Shown one piece after another: positions 6,074 to 24,289 of a stretch of DNA of 42,540 nucleotides. Position numbers and translations under genes: made by a program. Source of the DNA: Sagittula marina (lineage in GTDB: Bacteria > Pseudomonadota > Alphaproteobacteria > Rhodobacterales > Rhodobacteraceae); NCBI RefSeq assembly GCF_014196795.1, contig NZ_JACIEJ010000019.1, positions 1-42,540 of the forward strand, read 5' to 3'. Position 1 is the first letter of the stretch, and each line of letters opens with the position of its first letter. Under the pieces are notes generated by a model. It ran no database searches. It was not told the DNA's origin and saw nothing but the letters and a program-made list of their open reading frames with translations.

Positions 6074-6076
6074 GCG

Positions 6077-8431: not shown

Positions 8432-9766
8432 TCATACCGCGCTTGCCACCCGTTTCAGAGCACCTTCCAGCGTTTCGAGGAAACGGTCCACGTGGTCGCC
8501 AGCACAGATCAGCGGTGGCCGGATTTTCAGCGTGTCTTCGTTGGCGCCCGTTGTACTGATCAGCACCCCGTCGTCCCGCATCGCGTTGACCACGTCCAGT
8601 GCGGCCTTGCGCCGCTGCAGTGGCGTTGCATCCGGCCTGCCGATATCGACGCCGCAGAACAGCCCGGCATTTCGGATCTCGCCGATCATCTCCTGGCTCG
8701 TCGCCAAGGACTCCAGCCCCTGGCGCAACCGTTGACCCATGGCCAGTGCGTTGCCGGGAATGTCGTCGCGTTGCAGGATCGTCAGCACCGCTTCGGCTGT
8801 GGCGATGCCCACGGTGTTTCCGGCGAAGGTGTTCGAATAGCGCGCGGTGGTGCCGAAGCTTTCCATCGGATCCCTGCGGCCCACAACCGCGCCGATGGGA
8901 AAGCCGTTGCCCATCGGTTTGCCCAGGGTGGCGAGGTCCGGCACGATGCCGTGCCGCTGGAAACCCCACATATGCTCCCCGGTGCGCCCGAAACCCGGTT
9001 GCACCTCGTCCGCGATGACAAGGCCCCCCGCCGCGCGTACCGCATCGGCACCACCCGCGATGAAGCCTGGCGGATCAATGCAGACGCCGTCACTGGAAAA
9101 AATGCTGTCAAACAAAAGCGCCGCGACGCCGATGCCGCGCCGTTGGAGATCGTGGATCGCCGCCTTGACCTGCGCCTCGAAATGCGCCCCCGCCTGCTCT
9201 TGCCCGATACCCGCCGGGCCGGGCAAAGTAACCATCCGCACCGAGGGGCTGAGCCGGACCGCGTCGCCCAGGTTTGGGGACACCGCCGCGACGGCGGCAC
9301 TGGTGCCGTGATAAGCATAGGACGACACGATCACCCCGTCATTACCGCTGACATGGCGCGCGATGCGCAGCGCCAGATCGTTCGACTCGCTGCCGGTGCA
9401 GGTAAAGACGACGCGATCCATCGCCTCGGGAAAGGTCGCAATCAACCGTTCGGCATAGTCAACCAGACGAGGCTCGAGGTAGCGGGTGTTGGCGCTGATC
9501 CGGCCCGCCTGCTCGGTCATTGCCGCGTTGACCTCGGGGTGCGCATGCCCCAGTGACGGCACGTTGTTGTAGAAATCCAAGTAGGCCCGCCCGTCCGGAT
9601 CGTACAGCCACATGCCCTGCCCACGTACGAAATGCACCGGCCGCCGGTATTGCAGCCGATAGGACGCGCCGAGAACTGCGTCCCGGCGGGCAACAAGATC
9701 CGCCTCGCGTGCGGGCAGGTCTGTCTCGCCGGGACGAAAGCGGTTGGGCATCAGATCGGTGGTCAT
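8432..9766 (-). CDS. Class III PLP enzyme, AGXT2L-like phospho-lyase or aminotransferase
   Basis: The product is 444 aa. Landmarks are FYNNVPSLGHAHP (65-77), CTGSESND (123-130), SYAYHGTS (149-156), DEVQPGFGRTG with D253, and the PLP lysine K283 in LGKPMGNGFP. The GKPMGNG form around the lysine, rather than AKGxxxG or AKPLGGG, is typical of the AGXT2L branch (ethanolamine-phosphate and 5-phosphohydroxylysine phospho-lyases), which eliminates phosphate and ammonia instead of transaminating. The adjacent APH-fold kinase gene supports that reading. The ATG at 9766 is used because ACGAGG precedes it and homology starts soon after; the frame is open to 9952 only by overlap into the kinase gene. It is the last gene of the large minus-strand operon. 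A plain aminotransferase remains possible. Confidence 0.85.
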   Translation of the reverse strand: MTTDLMPNRFRPGETDLPAREADLVARRDAVLGASYRLQYRRPVHFVRGQGMWLYDPDGRAYLDFYNNVPSLGHAHPEVNAAMTEQAGRISANTRYLEPRLVDYAERLIATFPEAMDRVVFTCTGSESNDLALRIARHVSGNDGVIVSSYAYHGTSAAVAAVSPNLGDAVRLSPSVRMVTLPGPAGIGQEQAGAHFEAQVKAAIHDLQRRGIGVAALLFDSIFSSDGVCIDPPGFIAGGADAVRAAGGLVIADEVQPGFGRTGEHMWGFQRHGIVPDLATLGKPMGNGFPIGAVVGRRDPMESFGTTARYSNTFAGNTVGIATAEAVLTILQRDDIPGNALAMGQRLRQGLESLATSQEMIGEIRNAGLFCGVDIGRPDATPLQRRKAALDVVNAMRDDGVLISTTGANEDTLKIRPPLICAGDHVDRFLETLEGALKRVASAV

Positions 9767-9794
9767 AGTGCTGGCCTCGTGCTTGGAACTGCGG

Positions 9795-10874
9795 TTATGC
9801 CGCCTGAGGAGGCTGAGACAGGGCGGCGGTGACCGCTGCCGCTTCGGCGCGGGCATCCAGCCGGGACAGGATCGCCAATCCGTTCTGTGACCGTGCGACG
9901 TTCTTGTTAATGTAGATGGCTTGATCGGGAAAGAGATGCGAGCGCCAGGCATTGATCAGGACCAGCGCTGCCTGCCGCGCCCGCATCAGCCCGACGATCA
10001 CCGCCCGGTCGAGGTCGGACAGCGGTATCACGGAAGCATACCCGGCCAGCACCTGCTCGGCCCCGCCAAGCGGCAGTTCCGGGTCGGTGACCATGTGTCC
10101 GGCGGCCACCGCGAGGTCCTGTAAACGAGGATTCCAGCCGCCATCGCCGAAGTCGATGAAGCCGGTGCCGCCCCGCGTTTCCAGCATATTGTGCGGGCTG
10201 GGGTCGTTGTGGGTGATCTGCCAGTCCAGCGCGTCGAGCCGTGGCGCGACTTGGGACAGGTAATCCGCCATGGCCGCCCGGACATGCTCGGCCAGCGGTC
10301 CATCCGGCAGATGACACGATAGCGCGCTGAGCCGGGTCCAGCAGCCGATATGCCAAAGAACCGGGCGCCGCGTGCTCGGCGGATCGCAGCGCGCCAGCGC
10401 AAGGTTCAGCCGGCCCAGTGCCTGCCCGCTTTGTCTGGCAATGGCGGGCGTTTGCTCTTCTGCGTGCAAAGGCGCACCCTCCAGACGGGTTTGAACATAG
10501 CCGCACGTCCGGCCATCGCGAAACATCAGCGCGCCGTCCCGCGTCCGCAGCACCTTTGGCGCGATCACGTCAGCGTATGCCTCCAGATCCGAGAGCGTGC
10601 CCGACTGGAAGGCAAAGCTTTCGACCGCTTCGGGCCGTGCGGATGTCTTGAGGATGAGGCGCCGGCCGTCAGGGAGACGCAGCTCGTCAGTGCGTTCGAC
10701 TTCGGAAGCGAGAGGAACGATCTCGGTATCAATGCCGTAGTGCTGCGCGAGCATGTGAACCGCGTGGCTCGTATCGCCGTGTTCGGGTCGGGTCGCCATG
10801 GGGGCCAAGGCCGCCTGGAACCAGTCCTCTGACACGGGGCCGGTGCCTTTGTTCACGCTCGCCACAGGCATCAT
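9795..10874 (-). CDS. APH-fold small-molecule kinase (hydroxylysine/choline kinase-like)
   Basis: The product is 359 aa. The ATP lysine is probably K76 in RRLILKTSA. The catalytic loop is THNDPSPHNM (221-230, with D224) and the metal-binding motif is FIDFGDGGWNPRLQDLA (239-255). This is the aminoglycoside-phosphotransferase fold as used by choline/ethanolamine, homoserine and 5-hydroxylysine kinases. The start ATG at 10874 overlaps the stop of the dehydratase gene by 4 bases (ATGA), and the PLP lyase follows after 28 bases. Kinase plus AGXT2L-type lyase is the gene pair that degrades hydroxylysine or ethanolamine in animals, and the two also occur as fusions in some bacteria. Drug resistance is unlikely in this context. 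Confidence 0.82.
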   Translation of the reverse strand: MMPVASVNKGTGPVSEDWFQAALAPMATRPEHGDTSHAVHMLAQHYGIDTEIVPLASEVERTDELRLPDGRRLILKTSARPEAVESFAFQSGTLSDLEAYADVIAPKVLRTRDGALMFRDGRTCGYVQTRLEGAPLHAEEQTPAIARQSGQALGRLNLALARCDPPSTRRPVLWHIGCWTRLSALSCHLPDGPLAEHVRAAMADYLSQVAPRLDALDWQITHNDPSPHNMLETRGGTGFIDFGDGGWNPRLQDLAVAAGHMVTDPELPLGGAEQVLAGYASVIPLSDLDRAVIVGLMRARQAALVLINAWRSHLFPDQAIYINKNVARSQNGLAILSRLDARAEAAAVTAALSQPPQAA

Positions 10875-11860
10875 GCGACCTCGGGCACAGTGGTTTGGGT
10901 GCCATAGACCGCCGCAAGATCCGTCAGCCCCCAGTTGCCGCCGGTCAGAATGGTGCAAACCTTTTCTCCCGGTTGCAGCTTGATCGACCCGGCCAGCAAA
11001 GCGCCCACGCCGATCGCGGCAGAGGGTTCCGCCACCAGTTTCGCGTCCCGCGCCAAAGCCTGCATACCCGCCACTATGTCCGCGTCCTCGACGGTTACGA
11101 TCTCGTCCACGTAACGTTCGATGATCGGCCAGGGGTTCTGTCCCGGCACGCTGATCCGCAGTCCGTCCGCAATTGTATCCAGCAGCGGCAGTGACACGCG
11201 TTCGCCCTTGAGCCGGCTTTGGAAATACTTGGGCGTCAGCGCCGGTTCCGCAGCGATCACCCGGACCGATGGCTTGAGCGACTTGAGCGCTGTCGCCACG
11301 CCAGAGATCAGCCCGCCACCGCCAAGCGGCACGATCACCGTATCGACGTCCGGCAGGTCTTCGATGATCTCGCAGCCGATCGTCCCCTGTCCGGCCATCA
11401 CGCGGGGATCCTCAAAACCGTGTATGGTCTCGTAGCCCTCTTCCTCGGCAATGCGGTAGACCTGTTTCCAGCGCGCGGCGGTATCGCCGTCATAAAGGAT
11501 CACCTGTGCCCCTAGCGCGCGGGTGTTGTCGACCTTTTGCTGCGGCGTGGTGGTGGGCAGGACCAGCACCACCTTCGCCCCAAGCATCCGACCGGCCCAG
11601 GACAGGCCCTGCGCATGATTTCCCGAAGATGAGGAGATGAAACCGCGCGCGATCTGCTCGGGCGACAACTGCAGCGCGGTGTTGAGCGCACCGCGGATCT
11701 TGAAAGCGCCGGTCACCTGAAGCGTTTCGGCCTTGAGAAACAGCTGACAGCCGACGGAAGGTTCGATCCTGTCGGCGCGAAGAAGCGGGGTGCGATTGAC
11801 ATAGGACGCGATCCGCGTACGGGCGGCCTGAATGTCATCGAGTGTGGGGTGTTCCAGCAT
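10871..11860 (-). CDS. Threonine/serine dehydratase family PLP enzyme
   Basis: The product is 329 aa, the length of catabolic dehydratases without a regulatory ACT domain. The PLP lysine is K54 in TGAFKIRGA, the substrate loop is SSSSGNHAQG (76-85) and the phosphate-binding loop is PLGGGGL (178-184). The family removes water and ammonia from threonine, serine or 3-hydroxyaspartate. Its partner 14 bases upstream is an OCD-family gene. The same two families pair up as EutB/EutC in hydroxyectoine breakdown and as BhcB/BhcD in the beta-hydroxyaspartate cycle, so the true substrate may be a 3-hydroxy amino acid other than threonine. AAGGA precedes the start at good spacing. Confidence 0.88.
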   Translation of the reverse strand: MLEHPTLDDIQAARTRIASYVNRTPLLRADRIEPSVGCQLFLKAETLQVTGAFKIRGALNTALQLSPEQIARGFISSSSGNHAQGLSWAGRMLGAKVVLVLPTTTPQQKVDNTRALGAQVILYDGDTAARWKQVYRIAEEEGYETIHGFEDPRVMAGQGTIGCEIIEDLPDVDTVIVPLGGGGLISGVATALKSLKPSVRVIAAEPALTPKYFQSRLKGERVSLPLLDTIADGLRISVPGQNPWPIIERYVDEIVTVEDADIVAGMQALARDAKLVAEPSAAIGVGALLAGSIKLQPGEKVCTILTGGNWGLTDLAAVYGTQTTVPEVA

Positions 11861-11874
11861 CTCGTAGGGTCCTT

Positions 11875-12873
11875 TTATTTTGCCGGTGCCAGGAAATCGA
11901 ACGAAGTGCCGATCCCGCGCTCCCGCGCCAGTCGAAGCAGTGCGGCGGCGGTCGCGTTGTCCTGTATCGCCATGCCGGTGGAATCGAAAATGACGATCTG
12001 GTCGTCGCTCTCGCGGCCCGGTTTGCGATCCAGCAGCACTTCACCGATTTCGACAAGCGGCTCAGCCACGATGCCGGCCTTCAGGGCATGCTGCACCTCG
12101 CCTTTTTCGCGGCATTGGGCGGCGGCGTCCACCACCACTCGGGCGTCACGGAAAAGCTCAGGGTCCAATTCCTGCTTGCCCGGTTGATCCGCGCCGATGG
12201 CAACGACAAGGGTGCCGGGACGCAGCCATCCGTCTTGCAGCACGACGCCGCTCGCCCGCGTCGTTGTGATGACGACATCAGCCTCGGCGACGGCCTGTTC
12301 CGCAGAGGTCGCGCACACCACGGAAATGCCGAATTCCGCTTCGATCTCGGCGGCGAAGGCTTGCGCGCCCTCCGGTGATCGCCCCCATGCGTGGATGCTC
12401 TCGATTTGCATGACCTCGCGGATTGCGCGGATCTGCATGCGGGCCTGATTGCCGGTGCCAATAGCGGCGAGCCTGCACGCGCCGGGCCGTGCCAGCGCCT
12501 GAACCGCAATAGCGCCGGATGCACCCGTCCGGAATCCGGTCAAAAGGCTGCCATCCATCACGCAGGTCAACGCGCCGTTTTGTCCGTCAAACAACAGGAC
12601 CGTTCCCATGCCGTTCGGCAGGCCAAATCGGTCGGGGTTATGGCGGAACCCGCCAGACGATGCCTTGAGCGAGACCAGTTCGCCACTGCGGTGATACCCG
12701 GCCTTGAAATCAATTTCGGCCGCGTCGGTGGACAGGTGAATGCCCATATAAGGCGGTTGGTCCACATCACCGCCGCTATAGGCGCGATAGGCGTCCCCCA
12801 CCGCCGCGATCACGTCGGGCATGCGCATAAGGCTGCGCACATCTTCTTTTGTCAAAAGCAGTGTTCCGCTCAT
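11875..12873 (-). CDS. Ornithine cyclodeaminase / mu-crystallin family protein
   Basis: The product is 332 aa. Seen in order are LKASSGGF (69-76), the substrate arginine in GFRTGASGA (113-121), the Rossmann motif AAIGTGNQA (136-144), and GADQPGKQELD in the C-terminal half. The family includes ornithine cyclodeaminase, alanine dehydrogenase, Delta1-pyrroline/piperideine-2-carboxylate reductases, iminosuccinate reductase (BhcD) and EutC; they interconvert imino and amino acids with NAD(P)H. Start ATG 12873 overlaps the stop of the flavoprotein gene by 4 bases, and the dehydratase follows after 14 bases, so the three are one transcription unit. A reductase of a cyclic or linear imine made by the flavoprotein or dehydratase is the most natural guess. 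Confidence 0.85.
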   Translation of the reverse strand: MSGTLLLTKEDVRSLMRMPDVIAAVGDAYRAYSGGDVDQPPYMGIHLSTDAAEIDFKAGYHRSGELVSLKASSGGFRHNPDRFGLPNGMGTVLLFDGQNGALTCVMDGSLLTGFRTGASGAIAVQALARPGACRLAAIGTGNQARMQIRAIREVMQIESIHAWGRSPEGAQAFAAEIEAEFGISVVCATSAEQAVAEADVVITTTRASGVVLQDGWLRPGTLVVAIGADQPGKQELDPELFRDARVVVDAAAQCREKGEVQHALKAGIVAEPLVEIGEVLLDRKPGRESDDQIVIFDSTGMAIQDNATAAALLRLARERGIGTSFDFLAPAK

Positions 12874-14180
12874 CGCCGTGCCCGCCGCATCGCCAGTTTG
12901 TCCTGCGCTGTAAAATACCCAAGCATTGCCGGCAGGAACCAGGGATCGCCCTTGTAAAGCGGAACGGCAGCGGGCGGGCGCGCGGCAAAGGCGCTGCGGC
13001 CTGCATCTGCGCCCAGCAGCCGGTGCGCCGCGCGGCTGCCCACCCACGGCGCCCAGACCACGCCTGATCCGCAGAACCCGGTCGCATAATGAATACCGTC
13101 TTTCTCGAACAACCTCGGGATCATATCGCGGTTCATGGCGACGTTCCCGAACCAGCTGTGGCTGAGCTTGACCTGTGCCAGCTCTGGAAACAGCTCGGCC
13201 AGCCCGTTGCGCAGGCGCAGGGTCGGTTCCAGCGGGTCCCCCTGACGCGACCCATCGCGCCCGCCCAGAAGAATACGTCGCCCGTCCGGTGAGGGCCGAT
13301 AATAGAAACCCATCTGCCGGTTTTCCCCCATCATCATGCGGCGTGGCATCAGCCGGTCCATGACCTCGTGGGGCAGCTCTTCGGTGGCGATGATCCGGCT
13401 GCGAACCGGGATCATGCGGCGTTGCAGGTCGGGCATGGCCTTGTCGGTATAGCCGTTGGTGCACACCAGCACCTGCCGCGCCTGAACCGTGCCGCTGGCC
13501 GTTTCTACACGGCAGTGCGGACCCTCCGGCACAATCCCGGTCACGGGTGTCTGGCCGTGAACACTGGCGCCCGTGTCGCGGGTGATCCGCAAGAGTTCGG
13601 CATGGAACTTCGCCGGATGCAGACCGCCCACATCCATCCTTACCGTACCGCCGCGATAGAAATCCGTGCCGATATGGCTGTGCTGTTCCGAATGGGGAAC
13701 GGCATAGGTCTCGATCCCCAAACGTTTGCTCAGTGTCTCAGAGGCCCGGGCCATAGTGTCGTATTGATCGTAGCCAAGCGCCCCCTTGAAATTGCCGGTC
13801 AGCTTGAAATCGCACTCCAGCCCTTCGGTCCGGATCAGGTCCCAGAGGAATTCACGGGCGACTTTGCCCTCAGCCTCGATGGCAAGCGCCGCCCCCTGAC
13901 CAAAGCGCCGCTCGATCTCTGCAAAGCCGGGTCGGATGTTGCCGCTGGTGATGCCACCGTTGCGCGACGACGCACCTTCGCCCGGACGCATCGCGTCAAA
14001 GACCGCGACCGAGCGTCCGGCTCTCGTCAGGACCAGTGCGGCAGACAGCCCGGCAAAACCCGCACCGACGATGGCCACGTCCACCTTCTTGGGCAGCGGC
14101 GTTGTCGGCATAGCGTGGGGGGGCGCTGCCTCCCACCAGTAGGGCATAGCGGTAGCGGCCGCGCGTGGGTCTCTAGACAT
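12870..14180 (-). CDS. FAD-dependent oxidoreductase (DAO family)
   Basis: The product is 436 aa. AIVGAGFAG (36-44) is the FAD motif, followed by VFDAMRPGEGASSRNGGITSG, the DAO signature with SRNGG near the isoalloxazine. The N-terminal MPYWWEAAPP resembles the WWE/YW leader often seen in PuuB-like and sarcosine-oxidase-like proteins. The C-terminal YATGFCGSGVVWAPWVG closes the FAD site. The start at 14180 has TGAGGT upstream and is 8 bases after the permease stop; the open frame reaching 14297 overlaps the permease gene and shows no homology. Its position between the importer and the OCD/dehydratase genes suggests it performs the first oxidation of the imported compound (inference). Confidence 0.88.
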   Translation of the reverse strand: MSRDPRAAATAMPYWWEAAPPHAMPTTPLPKKVDVAIVGAGFAGLSAALVLTRAGRSVAVFDAMRPGEGASSRNGGITSGNIRPGFAEIERRFGQGAALAIEAEGKVAREFLWDLIRTEGLECDFKLTGNFKGALGYDQYDTMARASETLSKRLGIETYAVPHSEQHSHIGTDFYRGGTVRMDVGGLHPAKFHAELLRITRDTGASVHGQTPVTGIVPEGPHCRVETASGTVQARQVLVCTNGYTDKAMPDLQRRMIPVRSRIIATEELPHEVMDRLMPRRMMMGENRQMGFYYRPSPDGRRILLGGRDGSRQGDPLEPTLRLRNGLAELFPELAQVKLSHSWFGNVAMNRDMIPRLFEKDGIHYATGFCGSGVVWAPWVGSRAAHRLLGADAGRSAFAARPPAAVPLYKGDPWFLPAMLGYFTAQDKLAMRRARR

Positions 14181-14188
14181 ATGTGACC

Positions 14189-15070
14189 TCAGAAACTGTC
14201 GTTGCGGACGTCGAGCGCATCGCGCAGCCCGTCGCCGATGAAATTGAAGCTGGTGACAGCAAGGGTGATGGCGATACCTGGAATGATCGCGAGCCATGGG
14301 GCCGAGCCCAGATATTGCTGCGCGCCGTTCAGCATGTTGCCCCAGCTGGGCAAGGGCGGCTGAATGCCGAAGCCAAGGAAGCTGACGTAGGCCTCCAACA
14401 GAATTGCGCGGGCCACCGTCAATGTCGCGGCAACGATGATCGGCCCCATGCAGTTGGGCAGGATCTCGCGGAACATCATGTGCATCTTGCCCAGCCCCAG
14501 CATCCGGCCGGCCAGCACGAATTCACGCTCCTTGAGTGAACGAACCTCCGCTTCGACGATGCGGGCGACCTCCATCCAGCCGGTAAGCGCAATGATGATG
14601 GTGATCATGACCGGGCTGGGCTTTAGCGCCACGGCGAGGGCGAGCAACATAAAGATCGTTGGGAAGGACAGGAACCCATCGACAAAGCGCATCAGAACGG
14701 CGTTGACCACACGTCCGCCGTAGCCCGCAATCACACCGATCAGCGTACCCAAAATGGTTGCCAGAACCATGGCGAAGAACCCGACCAGTAGCGAAATCCG
14801 CCCCGCCGTCAACAGTCGCGCGGCGATGTCGCGGCCCAACGGATCGGTGCCCAGATAGTGTTGCCCGGACATCGGCGGCGAAAACCGGCCCCGCAGGTCG
14901 ATGTGGAGTGAATCGTAGGGCAGCAGATAAGGTCCGAAGATGCAGGCCAACGTCAGAAGCGTGATCATGACCAGCCCCAGCAGCGCCAGGCGGTGGCCAA
15001 AGAACCGCCGTGCGACGCGACTTTGCCACCAGCGGGGAACGGCGGTCGTGTTTATGTCGGTGGTGGTCAT
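14189..15070 (-). CDS. Opp/Dpp-type ABC transporter permease (DppC-like)
   Basis: The product is 293 aa with an N-terminal membrane helix (LALLGLVMITLLTLACIFGPYLL shifted to about 30-50), a periplasmic stretch containing HYLGTDPLGRDIAARLL, which is diagnostic of DppC/OppC, and then four further helices. The EAA loop ERE FVLAGRMLGLGK...EILPNCMGP contacts the ATPase. The start ATG at 15070 is preceded by GAAGGATCACCTCC; the GAAGG part can act as ribosome-binding site, while the rest copies the 3' end of 16S rRNA itself. It lies 22 bases after the DppB-like gene and belongs to the minus-strand importer operon. Confidence 0.9.
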   Translation of the reverse strand: MTTTDINTTAVPRWWQSRVARRFFGHRLALLGLVMITLLTLACIFGPYLLPYDSLHIDLRGRFSPPMSGQHYLGTDPLGRDIAARLLTAGRISLLVGFFAMVLATILGTLIGVIAGYGGRVVNAVLMRFVDGFLSFPTIFMLLALAVALKPSPVMITIIIALTGWMEVARIVEAEVRSLKEREFVLAGRMLGLGKMHMMFREILPNCMGPIIVAATLTVARAILLEAYVSFLGFGIQPPLPSWGNMLNGAQQYLGSAPWLAIIPGIAITLAVTSFNFIGDGLRDALDVRNDSF

Positions 15071-15092
15071 GGAGGTGATCCTTCTTTGGGAC

Positions 15093-16055
15093 TCAGGCCA
15101 GTCGAATGCGCGGATCGACAAGGGCGACGGTGATGTCAGCGATCAAATTGGCGACGATGGTCAGCAGCGCCGAAAACATCAGCAGCCCCATCACGACCGG
15201 ATAGTCGCTGTATCCCAGGCTATCGAGAAACAGCCGACCCATTCCGGGCCAGGTGAAAACGGTTTCGGTCACCAGCGCACCGGTCAGCAGTGACGGGATC
15301 TGCACACCCGCCAGCGTGATCATCGGGAGCATGGCATTTCCGACCACATGTTTCATGACGACGCGACGCTCGGTCACGCCCTTGGCGCGGGCGGTCTTGA
15401 CGAAATCCTGACTGATTGCATCCAGCGTCGCACCACGCATGAAACGGCTCCAGATGGCGATATGGACGAGCGCCAGCACAACAGACGGCATTATAAGATG
15501 ATGCAGGTAGTTGAGGACCGACTGATCCCCGATCGTGTACATGTTGCCGGCAGGCAGCCAACCAAGCTTCAGGGAAAAGACATATATACCGATCAGGCCA
15601 AACCAGAATGTGGGTATCGACAGCGCCACCATCGCGCCCACCGTCGCCACATAGTCAAAGCCGGAATACCGGTGTGTCGCTCCGCGAATGCCGATCCAGG
15701 TGCCGATGGCCACGGCGATCACCGTGGACGACCCCATCAACAGCAACGTCGCGGGCACGTGTCGCGCAATCACCGCGGTCACCGGGCTGCCATCGCGGAA
15801 CGAGGTGCCCCAGTCGCCCTGCAACATTCCCCAAGCCCACTCCAGGTATTGGATATGCAGCGGGCGGTTGAGGCCCAGTTGTTCTGTTATCCGGGCAATG
15901 TCTGCGGGTGTCATGCCGGGGTCGAGCGCAAATTGCGACAGGGGCCCACCCGGCATCAGGTTTAGCACCGTAAACCCGATGATCGACACGATCACCAAAA
16001 GCACGGCGCTTTGCAGGAAACGGCTAAAAAGGAATGCGGCCAAGGGACCCTCCAT
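15093..16055 (-). CDS. Opp/Dpp-type ABC transporter permease (DppB-like)
   Basis: The product is 320 aa with six predicted membrane helices, the first at about 9-32 (FLFSRFLQSAVLLVIVSIIG). The conserved PGGP after helix 1, QLGLNRPLHIQYLEWAWG in the first periplasmic part and the EAA loop DFVKTARAKGVTERRVVMKHVVGNAMLP identify it as the DppB/OppB partner. No strong ribosome-binding site precedes the ATG at 16055, so an alternative start slightly downstream cannot be excluded. It sits between the binding-protein gene (63 bases) and the DppC-like gene (22 bases). Confidence 0.9.
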   Translation of the reverse strand: MEGPLAAFLFSRFLQSAVLLVIVSIIGFTVLNLMPGGPLSQFALDPGMTPADIARITEQLGLNRPLHIQYLEWAWGMLQGDWGTSFRDGSPVTAVIARHVPATLLLMGSSTVIAVAIGTWIGIRGATHRYSGFDYVATVGAMVALSIPTFWFGLIGIYVFSLKLGWLPAGNMYTIGDQSVLNYLHHLIMPSVVLALVHIAIWSRFMRGATLDAISQDFVKTARAKGVTERRVVMKHVVGNAMLPMITLAGVQIPSLLTGALVTETVFTWPGMGRLFLDSLGYSDYPVVMGLLMFSALLTIVANLIADITVALVDPRIRLA

Positions 16056-16118
16056 TTCGGAATGGTGGTTTCAGAAGGTGCCGTCGCCCACCGCCAGGGG
16101 CGGGCGACGACAGGACGT

Positions 16119-17786
16119 TCAGCTCCAGTACCAAAGCGCAGCGTTGGAGGATTCTGTACGGACGTTCGAGTTTGCCTCGAACCCTTCCAGCCCGGCCTTG
16201 CGACCAAAGACGTTGACGTAGCGGAACAGCGGCAGGAACGGCAGATCCTCGCGGATGATCGCCTGGATTTCTTTGTAGATTTCCTTGCGACGTTCCGTAT
16301 CAAACGTTTTCGCGCCCTCTTCCAGAAGGCTGTCCACCTTGGGGTTGGAATACTGCGCGTTGTTCGAACCGCTGCCGCTTTTGGCTGCAATCGCATCACT
16401 ATGGAAGCGGTTGGTCACATCCGGGTCGGCGCCAATCAGGTAGGTGATCCCGACCATGGCGCTTTCGAATTGCGACTGGCCCCAGAATTCGCCCCACATC
16501 ACGGCTGGCGGCAGGTTTTCGATTCTCATCTCGACACCGATGTCCGCATAGGTCTGCTGAATGAACTGCTGCGCCTGCTCGCGCAGGTGCGCGCCGGTGG
16601 TGGTGGAGTTCGCAAAGCTCAGCCGCAGGCCATCCTTTTCGCGGATCCCGTCAGCGCCGGGCACCCAGCCTGCTTCGTCCAGCAGGCTTTTGGCCTTTTC
16701 GAGGTCGAAGGAATGCTCCGGCAGGTCCGGGTTGAAGTAGCTCGACGTTGACGGCATGAAGGTTTCCGCTTCGCCACCGACACCGAAATACAGGATGTCG
16801 ATAATCGACTTCCGGTCGATAGCGTAATAAAGTGCCTCGCGCACCGCCTTGTCCTGGAACACCGGCAGGGCCTGATTGAGGTAGATGGATTCGAGCGTCC
16901 CGCGCGGCTCAAGCGTGACGACGCGGTCTTCGAGCGCCTTGGCTTCAGCGTAATTGTCGGCCGTGATGTAGGCCTGGCCAACGAGGTCGACTTCCCCGCT
17001 GCGGAACTGGGTATAAAGCACCGTCATGTCCGGGATGTACTTGAACACAAGCTGTTCGATGTACGGGCCGTCGCCGTGGTAGTCCGGGTTCGCCACCAGC
17101 GAAACATTGTCGCCAGCCTGGCGCGACCCCCACTTGAAGGCACCGGTGCCGACGGGCGCTTGGTTGAATGGCGCATCGTTGGGATCTTCTGCCTGGCCAA
17201 GGATATGCTCGGGCATGATGAAGGTTTCGGTCAGGAACGAGATATACGGCGCGAAAGGCTCTTCCATGCGCCAGGTGATCTCGGTCGGGGAGACGACTTC
17301 GATGTCGCGGACCAGATCGTGGCCCGTGGTCCGCCAGGCGCGGAAATCGGGGTTGGTGATCAGCTCGAGAGTGAATTTGACGTCCTCGGCGGTGAACGCC
17401 TCGCCGTCGTGCCACTTTACATCGTCGCGCAGCTTGACCCGCCATTGCAGGCCGTCCTCGGACAGACCGCCATTCTCGATCGTCGGTACCTCTGTGGCAA
17501 GGTTCGGAACGATCTCACCCTCGGGGGTGATGCGGAACAGCGCGTCGAAGATTGAAAATGCAACGCCGTCATCGGTTTCGATATGTGGCATCAGCGGGTT
17601 GAAGACTGTGGGCTCCTGCGACAGACCGACCACGACGCGACCTGTAGGCTCGGACGGAGGAGTCTGCGCAAAGGCAGGCTTGCCCAGCAGATTGGGCGCC
17701 ACAATTCCGATCGCGCCACCTGCGGTCATCATGCGCAATGTCTGTCGCCGGGTGAAGGTCATGCCGGTTTCTTTGGTCTTTTTCAT
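16119..17786 (-). CDS. Peptide/opine-type ABC transporter substrate-binding protein
   Basis: The product is 555 aa, a normal size for SBP_bac_5 (cluster C) binding proteins. The N-terminus has a twin-arginine signal (FTRRQTLRMM, arginines 13-14) and a hydrophobic stretch ending in KPAFA at residue 40, so it should be exported folded by the Tat route. Family features include VVGLSQEPTVFNPL, the KLRDDVKWHDGEAFTAEDVKFT segment (the strongest family signature) and ALYYAIDRKSII. Such proteins bind di/oligopeptides, opines, glutathione or other amino-acid conjugates; the ligand is unknown. Gene order ATPase, binding protein, DppB, DppC is unusual only in that the ATPase gene comes first. Confidence 0.92.
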   Translation of the reverse strand: MKKTKETGMTFTRRQTLRMMTAGGAIGIVAPNLLGKPAFAQTPPSEPTGRVVVGLSQEPTVFNPLMPHIETDDGVAFSIFDALFRITPEGEIVPNLATEVPTIENGGLSEDGLQWRVKLRDDVKWHDGEAFTAEDVKFTLELITNPDFRAWRTTGHDLVRDIEVVSPTEITWRMEEPFAPYISFLTETFIMPEHILGQAEDPNDAPFNQAPVGTGAFKWGSRQAGDNVSLVANPDYHGDGPYIEQLVFKYIPDMTVLYTQFRSGEVDLVGQAYITADNYAEAKALEDRVVTLEPRGTLESIYLNQALPVFQDKAVREALYYAIDRKSIIDILYFGVGGEAETFMPSTSSYFNPDLPEHSFDLEKAKSLLDEAGWVPGADGIREKDGLRLSFANSTTTGAHLREQAQQFIQQTYADIGVEMRIENLPPAVMWGEFWGQSQFESAMVGITYLIGADPDVTNRFHSDAIAAKSGSGSNNAQYSNPKVDSLLEEGAKTFDTERRKEIYKEIQAIIREDLPFLPLFRYVNVFGRKAGLEGFEANSNVRTESSNAALWYWS

Positions 17787-17813
17787 TTTGTTTTTCCCTG
17801 TTTTGGTAGTGGT

Positions 17814-19496
17814 TTATGTCCCGGTATCCGCTTGTGTGGGCACCGTGGTCTTGTCGTCGAAGCGTTCCCCCGGGATCGCCGCGACCAACTGTCTCGTGTA
17901 GTCGGCTTCGGGATTGAAGAAGATCTGCGAGGGGCGGCCGAACTCGACAATCCGGCCTTTGTGCATCACCGCGATTTCGTCGCAGATCTGGCTTGCGACA
18001 CGCAGATCATGGGTGATGAAAATCATTGCCACACCGGTCTCGCGCTGGATCCGGTCGAGCAGTTCAAGGATTTGTGCCTGGATCGACACATCCAGCGCCG
18101 ACACTGCCTCATCGGCGATCAGGAGCTGCGGCTTGAACATCAGTGCGCGGGCGACACCGACACGCTGGCGCTGCCCGCCAGAAAACTCGTGCGGGTATCG
18201 ATCGAACGCACGCACGTCCAGACCCACAAGATTCAGCAACTCCATGGCCTCTTCCCGCGCCTTTGAACCCGACATGCCATGTGCTTTTGGACCAACAGTC
18301 AGGATCTGACCGACTGTCATGCGCGGGTTCAGCGAGGCGAAAGGGTCCTGAAAGATCATCTGGATCTTTGGCCGCATGCTGCGAAACTCGGATTCCGGCA
18401 GAGGGGCAATGTCACGCCCGTCGAACAGAATCTTTCCGGAATCGACGTCCATCAGGCGATTGAGCAGCCGTCCCAGCGAGGACTTTCCCGAGCCACTTTC
18501 GCCCACCACGCCCAACGTATGACCGGGCCGCACCTCAAAGGAGACGTCCTGCACCGCAGGAACAACGCGTTCTGTCCGGAACAACCGACTGCCACTGCGG
18601 TAGGTTTTGACCAGATTGCGCACCTTGAGCAGCGGCTCGGCCGCGGCGCTGGCTGTCGCCTCGCGCGGGCGATCCTCGGCACGCAGGTGCGGCACCGCTG
18701 CGATCAGGCGCTTGGTATAGGGGTGGTCCGGCGCTTTCAAAACCTTGGCCGCCTCGCCACGTTCGACCACGTGGCCCTTTTCCATCACCACGACGCTGTC
18801 AGCGATCTCGGCCACCACGCCGAAGTCATGGGTGATGAACATGACGCTCATGCCCTTACGGCGCTGGATATCCCGAATCAACGTCAGGATCTGCGCCTGA
18901 GTTGTCACATCAAGGGCGGTGGTGGGTTCGTCGGCAATAAGGATCGTCGGCTCCAACGACAGCGCCATGGCAATCATCACCCGCTGACGCTGCCCACCGG
19001 ACAGGCGAAAGGGATACTGGTGATACATCATGGCCGGATCGGGCAGGCCGACCTCGGTCAGCAGTTCGACCGTACGCGTCCGGCGCGACTGGGCCGTGCC
19101 TTCGCCATGGGCGGCCATGGCCTCTTCGATCTGAGCGCCAACGGTCATCAGCGGATTGAGCGCAGACAACGGATCCTGAAAAATCATCGACACGACGCGC
19201 CCACGCAGGCTGCGCAATTCCTCGGCTTCCATGCCGACGATTTCGCGGCCTTCCAGCGTGATAGAGCCAGCGCTGGTCTCCATGCCTCTGGGCAGGAGCC
19301 CCATGATGGTGCTCGCGGTCATCGACTTGCCAGATCCAGATTCGCCAATCACGCAGAGGATCTGGCCACGGTTCAGGTTGAAGGAAACTCCCTCGATCGC
19401 GTTAAGCCGTTCCATGCCGACGGGCAGGCTCACCGTAAGGTCGCGAACCGACAGCGCGACGTCGGGGGCGGATGCGGGGTGACCTCCAGCGACCAT
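17814..19496 (-). CDS. Opp/Dpp-type ABC transporter, fused two-domain ATPase (GsiA-like)
   Basis: The product is 560 aa and contains two complete ABC ATPase domains in tandem. Domain 1: Walker A GESGSGKS 51-58, signature LSGGQ 165-169, Walker B ILIADE 185-190. Domain 2: GESGSGKS 332-339, FSGGQ 438-442, LLIADE 458-463. Each half carries the C-terminal oligopeptide-transporter segment (DHPYTKRLIAAVPH; ADYTRQLVAAIPG). It fuses DppD and DppF, as in GsiA. ATG 19496 is preceded by AGAGGAAA. The frame is open to 19781, but the extra 95 codons show no domain, so the 19497-19761 gap is taken as non-coding with no other feature seen. It heads the importer operon. Confidence 0.92.
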   Translation of the reverse strand: MVAGGHPASAPDVALSVRDLTVSLPVGMERLNAIEGVSFNLNRGQILCVIGESGSGKSMTASTIMGLLPRGMETSAGSITLEGREIVGMEAEELRSLRGRVVSMIFQDPLSALNPLMTVGAQIEEAMAAHGEGTAQSRRTRTVELLTEVGLPDPAMMYHQYPFRLSGGQRQRVMIAMALSLEPTILIADEPTTALDVTTQAQILTLIRDIQRRKGMSVMFITHDFGVVAEIADSVVVMEKGHVVERGEAAKVLKAPDHPYTKRLIAAVPHLRAEDRPREATASAAAEPLLKVRNLVKTYRSGSRLFRTERVVPAVQDVSFEVRPGHTLGVVGESGSGKSSLGRLLNRLMDVDSGKILFDGRDIAPLPESEFRSMRPKIQMIFQDPFASLNPRMTVGQILTVGPKAHGMSGSKAREEAMELLNLVGLDVRAFDRYPHEFSGGQRQRVGVARALMFKPQLLIADEAVSALDVSIQAQILELLDRIQRETGVAMIFITHDLRVASQICDEIAVMHKGRIVEFGRPSQIFFNPEADYTRQLVAAIPGERFDDKTTVPTQADTGT

Positions 19497-19761
19497 AGGC
19501 TGTATTTCCTCTTGACTGCGCGCCGGGCTGCGACAGATGTCACCGGGCCGGGGCGTTGTTGTGGGGCGGTCCATCGGTTCGAAGCCGAACCGGAAGGGAG
19601 AATTTCGCCGCCTTTGAGTAGAGTGTGAAGGTTCGCAAGCCACGATGGTGTGGTTTCGCGCCGATGATGCAGCAGGAAAGTCTGTTTCCGGCGCTCCTTT
19701 GGGCATATCCTTCTGGTGATGGCTCATGGTGTGACTCTGGCCATCGCGGCTGGAGCCACGA

Positions 19762-20118
19762 TCAATCCTGAACAACGACATAGATCTTCTGCACCGTTTC
19801 CAGCGTGCGCCACACGCCGGTAAAGCCGGGCTTCATCACGAAACTGTCGCCGGCAGCAAAGCTGTGCGTCGCGCCGCCGGTTTCTTCGATCTCGACTGAG
19901 CCGGACAGGATGTGACAGAATTCAAACGTCGTCCCCTTGATGGAATGCGTTTCGCCCGGCGTCGCCTCCCAGACCCCCGTCAGCACGCTGCCGTCGCGGG
20001 ACGCGTCCTGCGCCCACGTTTTAAAGGCCGGCGCGCCGGAGATCAGTCTTTCGGGCAAAGGTTGCGCATGCTTCGGCGCGAAATCGGGTTTAGGGTCGAG
20101 AGGGACGAGATTTGACAT
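19762..20118 (-). CDS. Small cupin domain protein (Cupin_3-like)
   Basis: The product is 118 aa, a single beta-barrel. It reads TGVWEATPGETHSI, then FEFCHILSGSVEIEE, then HSFAAGDSFVMKPGFTGVWRTLETVQKIYV, the Cupin_3 (DUF861) pattern shared with ureidoglycine aminohydrolase-like and EutQ-like proteins. The metal-ligand set is partly degenerate (FEFCHIL in place of the usual histidine-rich motif 1), so an enzymatic role is uncertain. It lies between the aldehyde dehydrogenase and importer genes on the same strand, and may bind the imported metabolite or a product. The 168-base gap upstream likely holds its promoter. Confidence 0.82.
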   Translation of the reverse strand: MSNLVPLDPKPDFAPKHAQPLPERLISGAPAFKTWAQDASRDGSVLTGVWEATPGETHSIKGTTFEFCHILSGSVEIEETGGATHSFAAGDSFVMKPGFTGVWRTLETVQKIYVVVQD

Positions 20119-20286
20119 GGATGCTCCTGTTGGAATGGGTTGCGCAGGCCTTTTGCAAAGATCTTTTTGTTTTCTTCAGCCTGCCCCTTGCTGAATTGCT
20201 TTTTGTGCCGAATGCAGCGGCCGTGCAGTGGAAAATGGCGATCATCCCCGTCCTGACAGATTTATCGGCCGGGGCGGATCTGCAGC

Positions 20287-21750
20287 TCAGGACTGAGGGA
20301 AATAGCCCAGCATTGATTTGACTTCGAGATACTCAAGCAGACCTTCGCGCCCGAACTCGCGGCCATTTCCCGACTGGCGGTAGCCGCCAAAGGGGGCGTG
20401 CGGATCGAACGCGGGGTAGTTCAGGTGGACCTGTCCAGCCCGGATCTGCCGACCGACCGCGCGCGCCTGATCCAGATGGCGGCCCTGCACATGCGCGCCC
20501 AGTCCGTACACCGTGTCATTGGCTATGGCGATGCCGTCTTCAAGTGTGTCGTAGGGAAGGACGCACAAGACCGGGCCAAAGATTTCCTCCTGCGCGATGC
20601 GCATGTCGCTCCGGACATCGGAAAACACCGTTGGCCGGACGAAAAGCCCGCTGTCCAGCCCATCGGGGCGGCCCGGCCCGCCAGCGATCATTCGCGCGCC
20701 TTCTGCCATGCCGACTTCGATCATCTGCTGGATGCGGTCGAACTGCGCCCGGTTCGCGATGGCGCCGTGGGTCACACCGGCATCCCTTGGATCACCCACG
20801 GTGATTTCCAAAACCGCGCGGACGACGATGTCCTCGACTTCGGCCAAATGCGCGCGCGGCACGATCATCCGGGTCGGCGCGCTGCACGACTGGCCAAGAT
20901 TGCGCATCGCCGCTGCCACGCCGGGAGGCACTGCGCGCGCCAGGTCTGCATCGGGAAGGATAAGGTTGGGGGACTTGCCGCCCAGCTCTTGCGCCACGCG
21001 TTTGACTGTGTCCGCCGCGGCCTTGGCGACAGCGATGCCTGCCCTGGTGGAGCCGGTAATCGAGATCATGTCGACATCCCGGTGGATCGACAAAGCCGTT
21101 CCCACGCCCGGTCCGTCGCCCTGGACCAGGTTGAAAACCCCGGCGGGCACACCCGCCTCCTCGATCAGTTCGGCAAACAGCAACGCGTTCAGCGGTGCCA
21201 GCTCACTGGGTTTCAGAACCACGGTGCAGCCCGCCGCCAGCGCCGGGGCAACCTTGGCCGTGATCTGGTAGAGCGGCCAGTTCCATGGCGTAATCAAGGC
21301 AACGACCCCGATGGGTTCGCGCACAATCGCGGTGGTTCCGCGCTGCGTGACAAAGGCGAACTCCCGCAAGACCTCGCAGGCCGTGCGCACATGGGCGATG
21401 GCCAGAGGCACCTGCGCCGTTTGTGCATAAGACAGCGCGGCCCCCATTTCGCGCGTCAGGCACTGCGCCAGCATATCTGCCCGATCCTCCATCAGATCGG
21501 CCAGCCGTTCCAGGATATCAGCGCGGTCTTGCGGTGCGCGTGCACTCCATCCGGCGAGGGCCGCCCGGGCTGCGGCGACAGCCCTGTCAACGTCCCGGGC
21601 GTCACCCAGCGGGATCCGGGCTATTTCCGTTTCGGTCGCGGGGTCGATGACGGCTTGGAACGCGCTGCCCTGCGGCGTTACCCAGTCTCCTCCGATCAGG
21701 AACTGATCCACCCGGTTGATTTTGGAAAGATGCGTAAGAGGATCGGTCAT
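20287..21750 (-). CDS. NAD(P)-dependent aldehyde dehydrogenase
   Basis: The product is 487 aa, the standard length. Catalytic residues are all visible: N157 in TPWNWP, E255 in AQELGGKSP, and the nucleophile C289 in GQSCSAPTR. The cofactor motif is FxxxGS-like MISITGSTRAG (228-238), and the C-terminal PFGGYRQSGNGREFG is family-typical. The enzyme oxidises an aldehyde to the acid. Start ATG 21750 has AAAGGA upstream. On the same strand follow the cupin, importer and catabolic genes; an aldehyde produced by the flavoprotein or by the phospho-lyase would be its natural substrate (inference). Confidence 0.9.
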   Translation of the reverse strand: MTDPLTHLSKINRVDQFLIGGDWVTPQGSAFQAVIDPATETEIARIPLGDARDVDRAVAAARAALAGWSARAPQDRADILERLADLMEDRADMLAQCLTREMGAALSYAQTAQVPLAIAHVRTACEVLREFAFVTQRGTTAIVREPIGVVALITPWNWPLYQITAKVAPALAAGCTVVLKPSELAPLNALLFAELIEEAGVPAGVFNLVQGDGPGVGTALSIHRDVDMISITGSTRAGIAVAKAAADTVKRVAQELGGKSPNLILPDADLARAVPPGVAAAMRNLGQSCSAPTRMIVPRAHLAEVEDIVVRAVLEITVGDPRDAGVTHGAIANRAQFDRIQQMIEVGMAEGARMIAGGPGRPDGLDSGLFVRPTVFSDVRSDMRIAQEEIFGPVLCVLPYDTLEDGIAIANDTVYGLGAHVQGRHLDQARAVGRQIRAGQVHLNYPAFDPHAPFGGYRQSGNGREFGREGLLEYLEVKSMLGYFPQS

Positions 21751-24261: not shown

Positions 24262-24289
24262 CTTGGGAAAATGCTGGAGGATGACCCCG

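What the first reader, a model, noticed from the sequence alone, without database searches (positions are those of the whole stretch)
8432..21750. Thirteen-kb minus-strand catabolic region with its own importer and unknown substrate
From the aldehyde dehydrogenase down to the PLP lyase, ten genes lie on one strand with mostly tiny gaps or 4-base overlaps: aldehyde dehydrogenase, cupin, double ATPase, Tat-exported binding protein, two permeases, DAO flavoprotein, OCD protein, dehydratase, APH-fold kinase and AGXT2L-like lyase. This set does not match a named pathway I know. A plausible reading is import of a peptide- or opine-like conjugate, oxidation by the flavoprotein, reduction of an imine, and removal of a phosphorylated hydroxyl by the lyase with the aldehyde then oxidised.
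Basis: partly seen in the sequence, partly recalled or inferred. Interest (0 to 1): 0.75.

Follow-up and report, generated by a model that had tools for sequence, protein, structure and literature searches.

The report
Plasmid cluster for unusual amino-acid conjugates
A bacterial plasmid carries a shared, modular set of about twenty genes that seems built to import and dismantle an amino-acid conjugate made of four-carbon units, possibly one with a four-membered azetidine ring such as the plant metal carriers nicotianamine or mugineic acid.

Summary
The block is real. It has 11 genes, not ten, and is the right half of a larger unit of 21 genes (241-25417). An Alloyangia plasmid has 19 of the 21, Paracoccus tibetensis 17. 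Ten control genes of the same window hit 0 of 80 related loci. The contig carries plasmid genes, and the block's lyase was not found in 3 of 3 other genomes of the genus.

The block is modular: importer + DAO oxidase; OCD + dehydratase; APH kinase + class III lyase, preceded by a HAD hydrolase in 49 of 80 loci. The lyase is closest to solved phospho-lyases. The HAD's best sequence match is L-azetidine-2-carboxylate hydrolase, at only 29%. In one relative a 58%-identical azetidine hydrolase lies one ORF upstream of kinase-lyase, with succinate-semialdehyde (SSADH) and tartrate dehydrogenases nearby. In Leisingera an aminotransferase 57% identical to the window's stands beside an azetidine-hydrolase homologue and the same two dehydrogenases. 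The host genome has that dehydrogenase pair on a small contig that may adjoin the window.

Best reading: breakdown of a secondary-amine conjugate of C4 amino acids. Boldest: nicotianamine/mugineic-acid catabolism. No substrate is shown; 19 of 20 azetidine-hydrolase neighbourhoods examined in other genomes lack SSADH, and known phospho-lyase chemistry needs a hydroxyl beside the amine.

The parts
3..146 (-). first 48 residues of a FAD oxidoreductase gene cut by the contig edge (context)
   Evidence: 71% to Palleronia FAD oxidoreductase residues 1-48, which in Palleronia lies between tartrate dehydrogenase and Lrp
241..807 (+). Lrp/AsnC-type regulator
   Evidence: Pfam AsnC; 91-93% identical and same place in Alloyangia, Palleronia and Ponticoccus plasmids
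815..1735 (-). D-isomer 2-hydroxyacid dehydrogenase (GhrA-like)
   Evidence: PF02826, GhrA model below cut-off; 79% in Alloyangia
1723..3117 (-). AT3, class III aminotransferase
   Evidence: PRK05965 818 bits over cut-off 729; 57% identical to the aminotransferase beside an azetidine-hydrolase homologue in Leisingera M527
3127..3957 (-). GNATa, double-GNAT acetyltransferase
   Evidence: PF18014 and PF13508
4079..5215 (-). ArgE-type deacetylase
   Evidence: TIGR01892 402 bits over cut-off 298
5408..6073 (+). HAD type II hydrolase, L-2-haloacid-dehalogenase-type
   Evidence: TIGR01428 160 over 125; best PDB sequence hit L-azetidine-2-carboxylate hydrolase; model pLDDT 93.5 and fold search
6077..7366 (+). 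DAO2, second DAO-family flavoprotein
   Evidence: PF01266; 85% in Alloyangia, adjacent to HAD there too
7384..8256 (-). GNATb, acetyltransferase
   Evidence: PF18014
8432..9766 (-). class III PLP phospho-lyase homologue
   Evidence: best PDB hits 5g4i phospholyase 364 bits and ethanolamine-phosphate phospho-lyase 275 bits
9795..10874 (-). APH-fold small-molecule kinase
   Evidence: PF01636; catalytic motifs; contiguous with the lyase in 69 of 80 loci
10871..11860 (-). PALP, fold-type II PLP dehydratase/racemase
   Evidence: PF00291; BhcB, threonine dehydratase and EutB models all below cut-off; serine racemase 242 bits
11875..12873 (-). OCD-family, imine-reductase type
   Evidence: PF02423; alanine dehydrogenase and iminosuccinate reductase nearest in PDB
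12870..14180 (-). DAO, FAD-dependent amine oxidase type
   Evidence: PF01266; AmaA pipecolate oxidase model 144 bits, far under cut-off 600
14189..15070 (-). ABC permease 2 (OppC type)
   Evidence: PF00528 and PF12911
15093..16055 (-). ABC permease 1 (OppB type)
   Evidence: PF00528 and PF19300
16119..17786 (-). Tat-type substrate-binding protein, family 5
   Evidence: PF00496; RRQTLR motif
17814..19496 (-). fused OppDF-type double ATPase
   Evidence: two ABC_tran stretches; start revised
19762..20118 (-). cupin (PF05899)
20287..21750 (-). aldehyde dehydrogenase
   Evidence: PF00171; BADH, phenylacetaldehyde and aminobutyraldehyde models below cut-off
23291..24196 (-). LysR regulator divergent from the next gene
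   Evidence: 81% in genome G303 in the same arrangement
24281..25417 (+). D-threo-3-hydroxyaspartate dehydratase homologue (DSD1 family)
   Evidence: PDB 3wqc 410 bits; 86% in G303, upstream of OCD-PALP-kinase-lyase with one gene between; 70% in Alloyangia
31041..35335 (.). plasmid replication/partition genes (context)
   Evidence: matches ParB, AAA ATPase and replication initiation protein of rhodobacterial plasmids at about 80%

Best explanation
The block is the importer-plus-oxidation half of a 21-gene, plasmid-borne, modular catabolic unit for a conjugate of four-carbon (C4) amino acids joined by secondary or tertiary amines. Proposed flow: the Tat-exported binding protein and Opp-type importer bring the conjugate in. 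DAO and DAO2 cleave its C-N bonds oxidatively, releasing C4 amino aldehydes (aspartate-semialdehyde type) that the ALDH oxidises. The HAD hydrolase acts at C2 of a released C4 acid, most likely opening an azetidine-2-carboxylate-type ring, giving a (2R)-2-hydroxy-4-amino acid. AT3 (or, for a unit with a hydroxyl beside the amine, kinase plus phospho-lyase) removes the terminal amine to give a C4 hydroxy-semialdehyde, oxidised by an SSADH to a D-malate/tartrate-type acid. Beta-hydroxyaspartate-type by-products go through the dehydratase + imine reductase pair (PALP-OCD) or the 3-hydroxyaspartate dehydratase. GNATs and ArgE would manage N-acetylated forms. Shown by calculation: gene families, motifs, linkage, plasmid context. 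Inferred: every reaction and the substrate class.
For: Linkage: of 21 genes, 19 in Alloyangia, 17 in Paracoccus tibetensis, 16 each in Ponticoccus and Rhizobium leguminosarum GLR17; ten control genes 0 of 80. Kinase-lyase contiguous in 69 of 80 loci, HAD-kinase-lyase in 49 of 80, OCD-PALP pair in 13 of 80. Lyase nearest to solved phospho-lyases. HAD nearest in sequence to L-azetidine-2-carboxylate hydrolase. In the fold search ranks 1-3 are one enzyme titled (S)-2-haloacid dehalogenase, whose K152A mutant (rank 2) is trapped with (2R)-4-amino-2-hydroxybutanoic acid, and ranks 5, 9 and 13 are azetidine hydrolase. Asp11, Arg49, Asn118, Lys148, Ser174 and Asp178 are invariant in 63 family members, window included. 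In L102 a protein 58% identical to the solved azetidine hydrolase lies one 175-aa ORF upstream of kinase-lyase, with tartrate dehydrogenase (552 over 470) and SSADH (708 over 646). In Leisingera M527: aminotransferase 57% identical to AT3, azetidine-hydrolase homologue (61% to the one in L102), Lrp, SSADH, tartrate dehydrogenase in a row. A more distant azetidine-hydrolase-like protein (41% to the solved one in Thioclava; 61-79% to the Thioclava one elsewhere) stands within two genes of AT3 in four plasmids, L163, L167, L172, L198. The host genome has tartrate dehydrogenase (560 over 470) and SSADH (655 over 646) side by side on 3.4-kb contig C35, whose edge holds the end of a FAD gene like the one cut at the window's left edge. 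Relatives have homoserine, threonine, PdxA, four-carbon acid kinase and aspartate ammonia-lyase genes (as annotated).
Against: The window HAD is only about 29% identical to azetidine hydrolase; Foldseek E-values barely separate that enzyme from haloacid dehalogenases and epoxysuccinate hydrolases, and a marine dehalogenase has the higher TM-score. In 19 of 20 alphaproteobacterial neighbourhoods of azetidine-hydrolase homologues no SSADH or tartrate dehydrogenase homologue was found by this test, and the twentieth had SSADH only (some stretches were short); 5 of 8 plasmid neighbourhoods lacked AT + SSADH. A 1,2-eliminating phospho-lyase cannot simply act on 4-amino-2-hydroxybutyrate. Ponticoccus and Palleronia do without kinase and lyase. 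The window itself has no tartrate dehydrogenase, and its only SSADH-like gene is the 38%-identical ALDH; C35 could instead adjoin a second partial copy at contig C3. ALDH, DAO, PALP and OCD match no specific model above cut-off. The DAO model failed (pLDDT 44).
Confidence: 0.42

Rival explanations
1. The unit handles free azetidine-2-carboxylate (or a ring-hydroxylated form) as nutrient or toxin; the oligopeptide-type importer and oxidases serve something else on the same plasmid.
For: L102 and Leisingera M527 have azetidine-hydrolase homologues with TRAP importers, and no DAO or DAO2 homologue in the fetched stretches. Aspergillus nidulans pairs an azetidine hydrolase with an acetyltransferase and the GABA route (PMC8016842, abstract and passages).
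Against: Importer + DAO stay linked to HAD + DAO2 in Alloyangia, Palleronia, Ponticoccus and Paracoccus tibetensis, which free azetidine-2-carboxylate would not need.
Confidence: 0.17
2. Hydroxyectoine-type catabolism: 3-hydroxy-2,4-diaminobutyrate is phosphorylated and deaminated by kinase-lyase to aspartate semialdehyde, and PALP-OCD replaces EutBC.
For: EutB/EutC are relatives of PALP/OCD; the genome has EutD over cut-off elsewhere (699 over 613) and no EutB over cut-off; a vicinal amino alcohol fits phospho-lyase chemistry.
Against: PALP and OCD score far under the EutB/EutC cut-offs (227 vs 413; 231 vs 472); EutD lies on another contig (C5); the importer is of Opp type; two DAO oxidases unexplained.
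Confidence: 0.1
3. Hydroxylysine or ethanolamine/1-amino-2-propanol salvage: kinase + phospho-lyase + ALDH, as hydroxylysine kinase + phospho-lyase or ethanolamine-phosphate phospho-lyase in animals.
For: Lyase is nearest to ethanolamine-phosphate-type phospho-lyases; a simple AraC / kinase / lyase / permease cluster exists in 9 of the 80 loci (Salinicola, Serratia, Rahnella, Rouxiella; gene names by my reading, no family search).
Against: Does not explain HAD, PALP-OCD, 3-hydroxyaspartate dehydratase, tartrate dehydrogenase or the C4 enzymes of relatives; DAO is far from an AmaA-specific score.
Confidence: 0.12
4. Plasmid accretion: several unrelated amino-acid catabolic modules share a plasmid because such plasmids collect accessory metabolism.
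For: Modules occur separately and in different orders; R. leguminosarum GLR17 has homoserine genes beside them.
Against: The same modules co-occur in Rhodobacterales and Rhizobiales in tight runs, e.g. LysR / 3-hydroxyaspartate dehydratase / reductase / OCD / PALP / kinase / lyase in G303; controls 0 of 80.
Confidence: 0.19

Closest known systems
L-azetidine-2-carboxylate assimilation (Pseudomonas sp. A2C hydrolase; AzhA/NgnA of Aspergillus nidulans)
   Same: HAD type II hydrolase, acetyltransferase, aminotransferase/SSADH-type route; a 58% azetidine-hydrolase homologue near kinase-lyase in L102
   Different: window HAD is a different subfamily (about 29%); window adds importer, two DAO oxidases, PALP-OCD and kinase-lyase
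Hydroxylysine kinase + 5-phosphohydroxylysine phospho-lyase; ethanolamine-phosphate phospho-lyase; phospholyase 5g4i
   Same: APH-fold kinase beside a class III PLP lyase with phospho-lyase motifs
   Different: substrate not established; HAD partner in 49 of 80 loci; separate polypeptides, unlike the fused PRK06148 model
Beta-hydroxyaspartate cycle (BhcABCD)
   Same: dehydratase + iminosuccinate-reductase-like pair and a DSD1-fold enzyme
   Different: all under the Bhc cut-offs; the genome has BhcA over cut-off on another contig (C3)
Hydroxyectoine utilisation EutBC
   Same: PALP + OCD pair
   Different: under both cut-offs; other neighbours
Homoserine catabolic plasmid genes of Rhizobium leguminosarum (pathway recalled)
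   Same: homoserine dehydrogenase and kinase genes lie beside the same modules on GLR17 plasmid p3
   Different: no such genes were seen in the window

Membership tests
Phosphohydroxy-amine phospho-lyase (class III PLP lyase) | closest to solved phospho-lyases rather than other class III enzymes | tested here: met
   364 and 275 bits versus 172 for the next, dialkylglycine decarboxylase; NNVP, RYL, GKPMG present
Phosphohydroxy-amine phospho-lyase (class III PLP lyase) | partner kinase with intact active-site motifs | tested here: met
   HxDxxxxN and DFG; contiguous in 69 of 80 loci
Phosphohydroxy-amine phospho-lyase (class III PLP lyase) | lyase activity on an O-phosphoamine | not testable with these tools
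   needs an enzyme assay
L-azetidine-2-carboxylate hydrolase | HAD type II fold with nucleophilic Asp and Lys | tested here: met
   TIGR01428 over cut-off, Asp11 and Lys148 invariant, model and fold search
L-azetidine-2-carboxylate hydrolase | close sequence kinship to the characterised enzyme | tested here: not met
   29% identity; so not filed as a member, only 'works like' proposed
Beta-hydroxyaspartate cycle | BhcB, BhcC and BhcD over curated cut-offs | tested here: not met
   277 vs 550 and 220 vs 500; DSD1 gene 92 vs 690; BhcA is on contig C3
Hydroxyectoine utilisation EutBC | EutB and EutC over cut-offs | tested here: not met
   227 vs 413 and 231 vs 472
D-threo-3-hydroxyaspartate dehydratase | strong match to the solved enzyme | tested here: met
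   410 bits to 3wqc; D-serine dehydratase 209, D-3-hydroxyaspartate aldolase 65
Opp/Nik-type peptide importer | family 5 binding protein, OppB/OppC permeases, double ATPase | tested here: met
Opp/Nik-type peptide importer | ligand class | tested here: inconclusive
   PDB neighbours are mixed peptide, nickel and opine binders

The most novel reading that the evidence does not exclude
This is a first candidate gene set for bacterial breakdown of azetidine-containing plant metal carriers (nicotianamine, deoxymugineic and mugineic acid). The importer takes up the carrier or its metal complex, two flavin oxidases cut it into aspartate semialdehyde units and azetidine-2-carboxylate, and the HAD opens the ring. 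AT3, SSADH and tartrate/D-malate dehydrogenase finish that C4 acid. Kinase + phospho-lyase and the 3-hydroxyaspartate enzymes serve the hydroxylated units of mugineic acids.
Probability: 0.17. Interest if true: 0.87.

Novelty: new variant of a known kind. Interest (0 to 1): 0.6.

Why it matters
A 2021 study that saw Pseudomonas fluorescens lower mugineic and deoxymugineic acid states that the taxa and genes for phytosiderophore metabolism are currently unknown, and offers three upregulated genes of its own as candidates (PMC7786132, passages). If this unit does that job, a question about iron competition between grasses and rhizosphere bacteria becomes testable with named genes. Even without that substrate, the work joins a kinase/phospho-lyase pair of unknown role, an azetidine-hydrolase-like HAD and 3-hydroxyaspartate enzymes into one recurrent unit with a concrete C4 pathway to test.

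Tried and rejected
Filing PALP-OCD as EutBC or BhcBD: rejected on curated cut-offs; the genome has BhcA and EutD elsewhere. Filing the kinase-lyase pair as hydroxylysine kinase/phospho-lyase: kept as a rival only. Filing the window HAD as an azetidine hydrolase: rejected as membership (29%), kept as a working analogy.

Led nowhere: the DAO structure model (pLDDT 44); the promoter and terminator scan, at shuffle level; literature on bacterial genes for 1-amino-2-propanol, hydroxylysine, phospho-lyase, azetidine, nicotianamine or mugineic-acid catabolism (searches, in an open-access library only; listings, except passages of PMC8016842, PMC8154272, PMC10869282 and PMC7786132). The EutBC papers were seen as listings only. 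That no such gene set is in print rests on those searches alone.

Rows dropped or limited: of 103 lyase loci the tool kept 80. Of 178 plasmid records with azetidine-hydrolase homologues I opened 8 by that search: AT + SSADH in 3 (L193, L196 and, with the more distant homologue, L198), not in 5. Of 50 alphaproteobacterial genomes with a match (385 searched) I opened 20. Of 267 plasmid records with a lyase homologue I opened 10; five further regions were chosen by DNA similarity to the window. The 17 loci counted were picked because they carry parts of the block. A Novosphingobium pentaromativorans plasmid has HAD-kinase-lyase with no siderophore receptor directly beside it.
Full report
What is there. 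The window is one 42,540-base contig (C19 of a 5.04 Mb genome in 45 contigs) with plasmid replication and partition genes at 31-35 kb whose nearest records are rhodobacterial plasmids; that the host is rhodobacterial is inferred from this and from the block's relatives. Its ends do not overlap. With revised starts, nine of them, from the double ATPase to the lyase, form a tight run (gaps -4 to 63). The cupin stands 265 bases upstream of the ATPase and the ALDH 168 bases upstream of the cupin.

The unit is larger. Comparing the window with 80 loci that encode relatives of the lyase (103 found, 80 kept) showed that genes outside the given coordinates travel with it: Lrp, 2-hydroxyacid dehydrogenase, class III aminotransferase AT3, acetyltransferases GNATa and GNATb, ArgE, HAD, DAO2 (241-8256), and a 3-hydroxyaspartate dehydratase with its LysR (23291-25417; LysR in few loci). 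Counting 21 genes in 17 loci picked because they carry parts of the block: Alloyangia pacifica plasmid 19, Paracoccus tibetensis 17, Ponticoccus alexandrii plasmid 16, Rhizobium leguminosarum GLR17 p3 16, R. etli IE4771 15, Rhizobium Pop5 15, Sinorhizobium meliloti LMB1 14, Palleronia 13, Bradyrhizobium 195 and Aminobacter 12, down to 5 in Mesorhizobium 131-2-1 and Rhizobium ACO-34A. As a control, ten other genes of the window hit 0 of the 80 loci at 50% identity over 60% of the query; block genes hit up to 57 (HAD), and LysR hit none.

It is accessory. The lyase at 79% identity or more occurs in 2 of 393 other genomes of the family, and no lyase match at E 1e-60 was found in 3 of 3 other genomes of the genus. 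The kinase matched 19 of 294 other family genomes, at 35% identity or less.

Modules. APH kinase and lyase are contiguous in 69 of 80 loci, HAD-kinase-lyase in 49 of 80, OCD with PALP in 13 of 80. In the window the HAD is instead beside DAO2 on the plus strand, as in Alloyangia, Palleronia, Ponticoccus, Thioclava, Pseudosulfitobacter and Paracoccus sp. MA. In genome G303 the order is LysR | 3-hydroxyaspartate dehydratase, BhcD-like reductase, OCD, PALP, kinase, lyase, with an SSADH (654 over cut-off 646) beyond LysR. Among the importer-side genes Ponticoccus lacks kinase and lyase; Palleronia also lacks cupin, OCD and PALP. So importer + DAO + HAD + DAO2 + ALDH is what the three marine or sediment plasmids Alloyangia, Palleronia and Ponticoccus share, and kinase-lyase is optional.

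Enzymes. The lyase is closest to two solved phospho-lyases (364 and 275 bits, next enzyme 172). That 5g4i acts on O-phosphoethanolamine is recalled; that relatives act on 5-phosphohydroxylysine and phosphoethanolamine is visible in a reference title of PMC8154272 (passages). That paper says the class III lyases known before its own enzyme release phosphate by 1,2-elimination. The kinase has its active-site motifs. PALP and OCD are nearest to threonine dehydratase/serine racemase and to alanine dehydrogenase/iminosuccinate reductase, but below every specific cut-off. The gene at 24281 is a strong match to D-threo-3-hydroxyaspartate dehydratase (410 bits). The genome carries BhcA and EutD over cut-off on other contigs and no EutB over cut-off, so the block is not the place of this organism's BhcA; a stand-in role for EutBC is not excluded.

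The azetidine lead. The HAD's best sequence match in the PDB is L-azetidine-2-carboxylate hydrolase (74 bits). Its predicted fold (pLDDT 93.5) ranks first against an enzyme titled (S)-2-haloacid dehalogenase, one mutant of which is trapped with (2R)-4-amino-2-hydroxybutanoic acid, and ranks 5, 9 and 13 are azetidine hydrolase itself. The E-values of dehalogenases and epoxysuccinate hydrolases follow closely, and several have equal or better TM-scores, so fold alone does not decide. Residues that I recall as the L-2-haloacid dehalogenase catalytic set are invariant in the 63 family members. Independent linkage is stronger. In L102, a Rhizobiaceae metagenome genome, a protein 58% identical to the solved azetidine hydrolase lies one ORF upstream of kinase-lyase, where other loci have the HAD, with tartrate dehydrogenase and SSADH, both over cut-off, beyond the lyase. 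On a Leisingera M527 plasmid a TRAP importer, a regulator, an aminotransferase 57% identical to AT3, an azetidine-hydrolase homologue, Lrp, SSADH and tartrate dehydrogenase follow one another. On a Burkholderia ambifaria plasmid two such hydrolases stand near Lrp, SSADH, a related aminotransferase and a GABA permease. In four plasmids a more distant hydrolase (41% in Thioclava) stands within two genes of AT3, one from an Agave rhizosphere strain; the family Agavaceae is named as a producer of azetidine-2-carboxylate in PMC8016842 (abstract). Against this, 19 of 20 alphaproteobacterial neighbourhoods of azetidine-hydrolase homologues showed no SSADH or tartrate dehydrogenase homologue and the twentieth SSADH only, and 5 of the 8 plasmid neighbourhoods opened lacked AT + SSADH.

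The missing dehydrogenases. The window has no tartrate dehydrogenase match and no SSADH beyond its 38%-identical ALDH. The host genome does have both over cut-off, side by side on the 3,385-base contig C35. In Palleronia the order is SSADH, tartrate dehydrogenase, FAD oxidoreductase, Lrp; Alloyangia has tartrate dehydrogenase, FAD oxidoreductase, Lrp. C35 ends in the last 58 residues of that FAD gene, and the window begins with its first 48 residues beside Lrp. The genome, however, holds a second such start at contig C3 (beside a 64% Lrp in two frames and a 75% GNATa) and a second such end at contig C4, so C35 may adjoin either the window or C3; no shared end of 15 bases or more was found.

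A pathway that uses these parts. Azetidine-2-carboxylate + water gives (2R)-4-amino-2-hydroxybutanoate (HAD); AT3 gives the 2-hydroxy-4-oxo acid; SSADH gives D-malate; tartrate dehydrogenase, known to act on D-malate (recalled), gives pyruvate. The R configuration of the trapped product (title) fits a D-acid route. Oxidation of a C4 amine substituent by the DAO enzymes would release aspartate semialdehyde, which would explain ALDH here and homoserine, threonine, DapA and aspartase genes in rhizobial relatives. Kinase-lyase needs a hydroxyl next to the amine; a 3-hydroxylated C4 unit (as in mugineic acid, 3-hydroxymugineic acid or hydroxyectoine; structures recalled) would give an aspartate- or malate-type semialdehyde, and 3-hydroxyaspartate formed on the way would suit PALP-OCD and the 3-hydroxyaspartate dehydratase. 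Nicotianamine would yield two aspartate semialdehydes and one azetidine-2-carboxylate. All of this is inference.

Metal link. Four Novosphingobium loci (L038, L043, L050, L052) carry a gene of one family divergent from HAD-kinase-lyase (family c30); the L043 member is a TonB siderophore receptor over cut-off with a PepSY gene beside it; the others were not tested by model. A manganese/iron ABC transporter adjoins the Ponticoccus block. N. pentaromativorans US6-1 lacks the adjacent receptor. The window organism's habitat is not known to me, and several relatives come from sea water or sediment, not grass roots, which weakens the phytosiderophore reading.

Verdict. A real, recurrent, modular catabolic unit with a C4 amino-acid theme; substrate not shown. 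An azetidine-type conjugate is the best single reading, with the plant metal carriers as the boldest version.

Noticed in passing
window 5408-6073: Window HAD has Asn97 and Ala136 where the 62 other aligned family members have His; Paracoccus tibetensis L056, not among them, shows the same two residues.
   Followed up: partly
window 1-146; contigs C3, C4 and C35 of the host genome: A FAD oxidoreductase gene is cut at four contig edges (starts at C19 and C3, ends at C35 and C4), a sign of two similar copies of this region in the genome; the C3 side has an Lrp match in two frames and a 75% GNATa.
   Followed up: partly
window 35713-41576: Second catabolic set by reading: DAO-type oxidase, Gfo/Idh-type dehydrogenase, polar amino-acid-type ABC importer and a LacI regulator; not found in the 80 loci.
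   Followed up: no
window 25566-28176: ORFs at 26377-27120 and 25566-26111 read like transposase pieces between the block and the replicon; not tested with a family search.
   Followed up: no
L129 (genome G299) 8580-16563: A kinase-lyase pair (54% lyase) stands beside BhcA, BhcB, BhcC and BhcD, all over their cut-offs.
   Followed up: partly
L166 and L171 (Rhizobium etli IE4771, Rhizobium Pop5): Two different HAD / kinase / lyase sets in one locus; the second lyase is about 47% identical to the window's.
   Followed up: no
L069, L072, L077, L078, L088, L097, L098, L100, L101: A minimal AraC / kinase / lyase / permease cluster (names by reading) that looks like bacterial ethanolamine or aminopropanol use by a phosphorylated route.
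   Followed up: no
L102 12480-12869: A 129-aa aminotransferase N-terminal fragment beside tartrate dehydrogenase, as if kinase-lyase had taken over from the transaminase.
   Followed up: no
L161, L169, L171: PdxA plus four-carbon acid kinase recur beside the modules in rhizobia, suggesting a four-carbon hydroxy acid intermediate.
   Followed up: no
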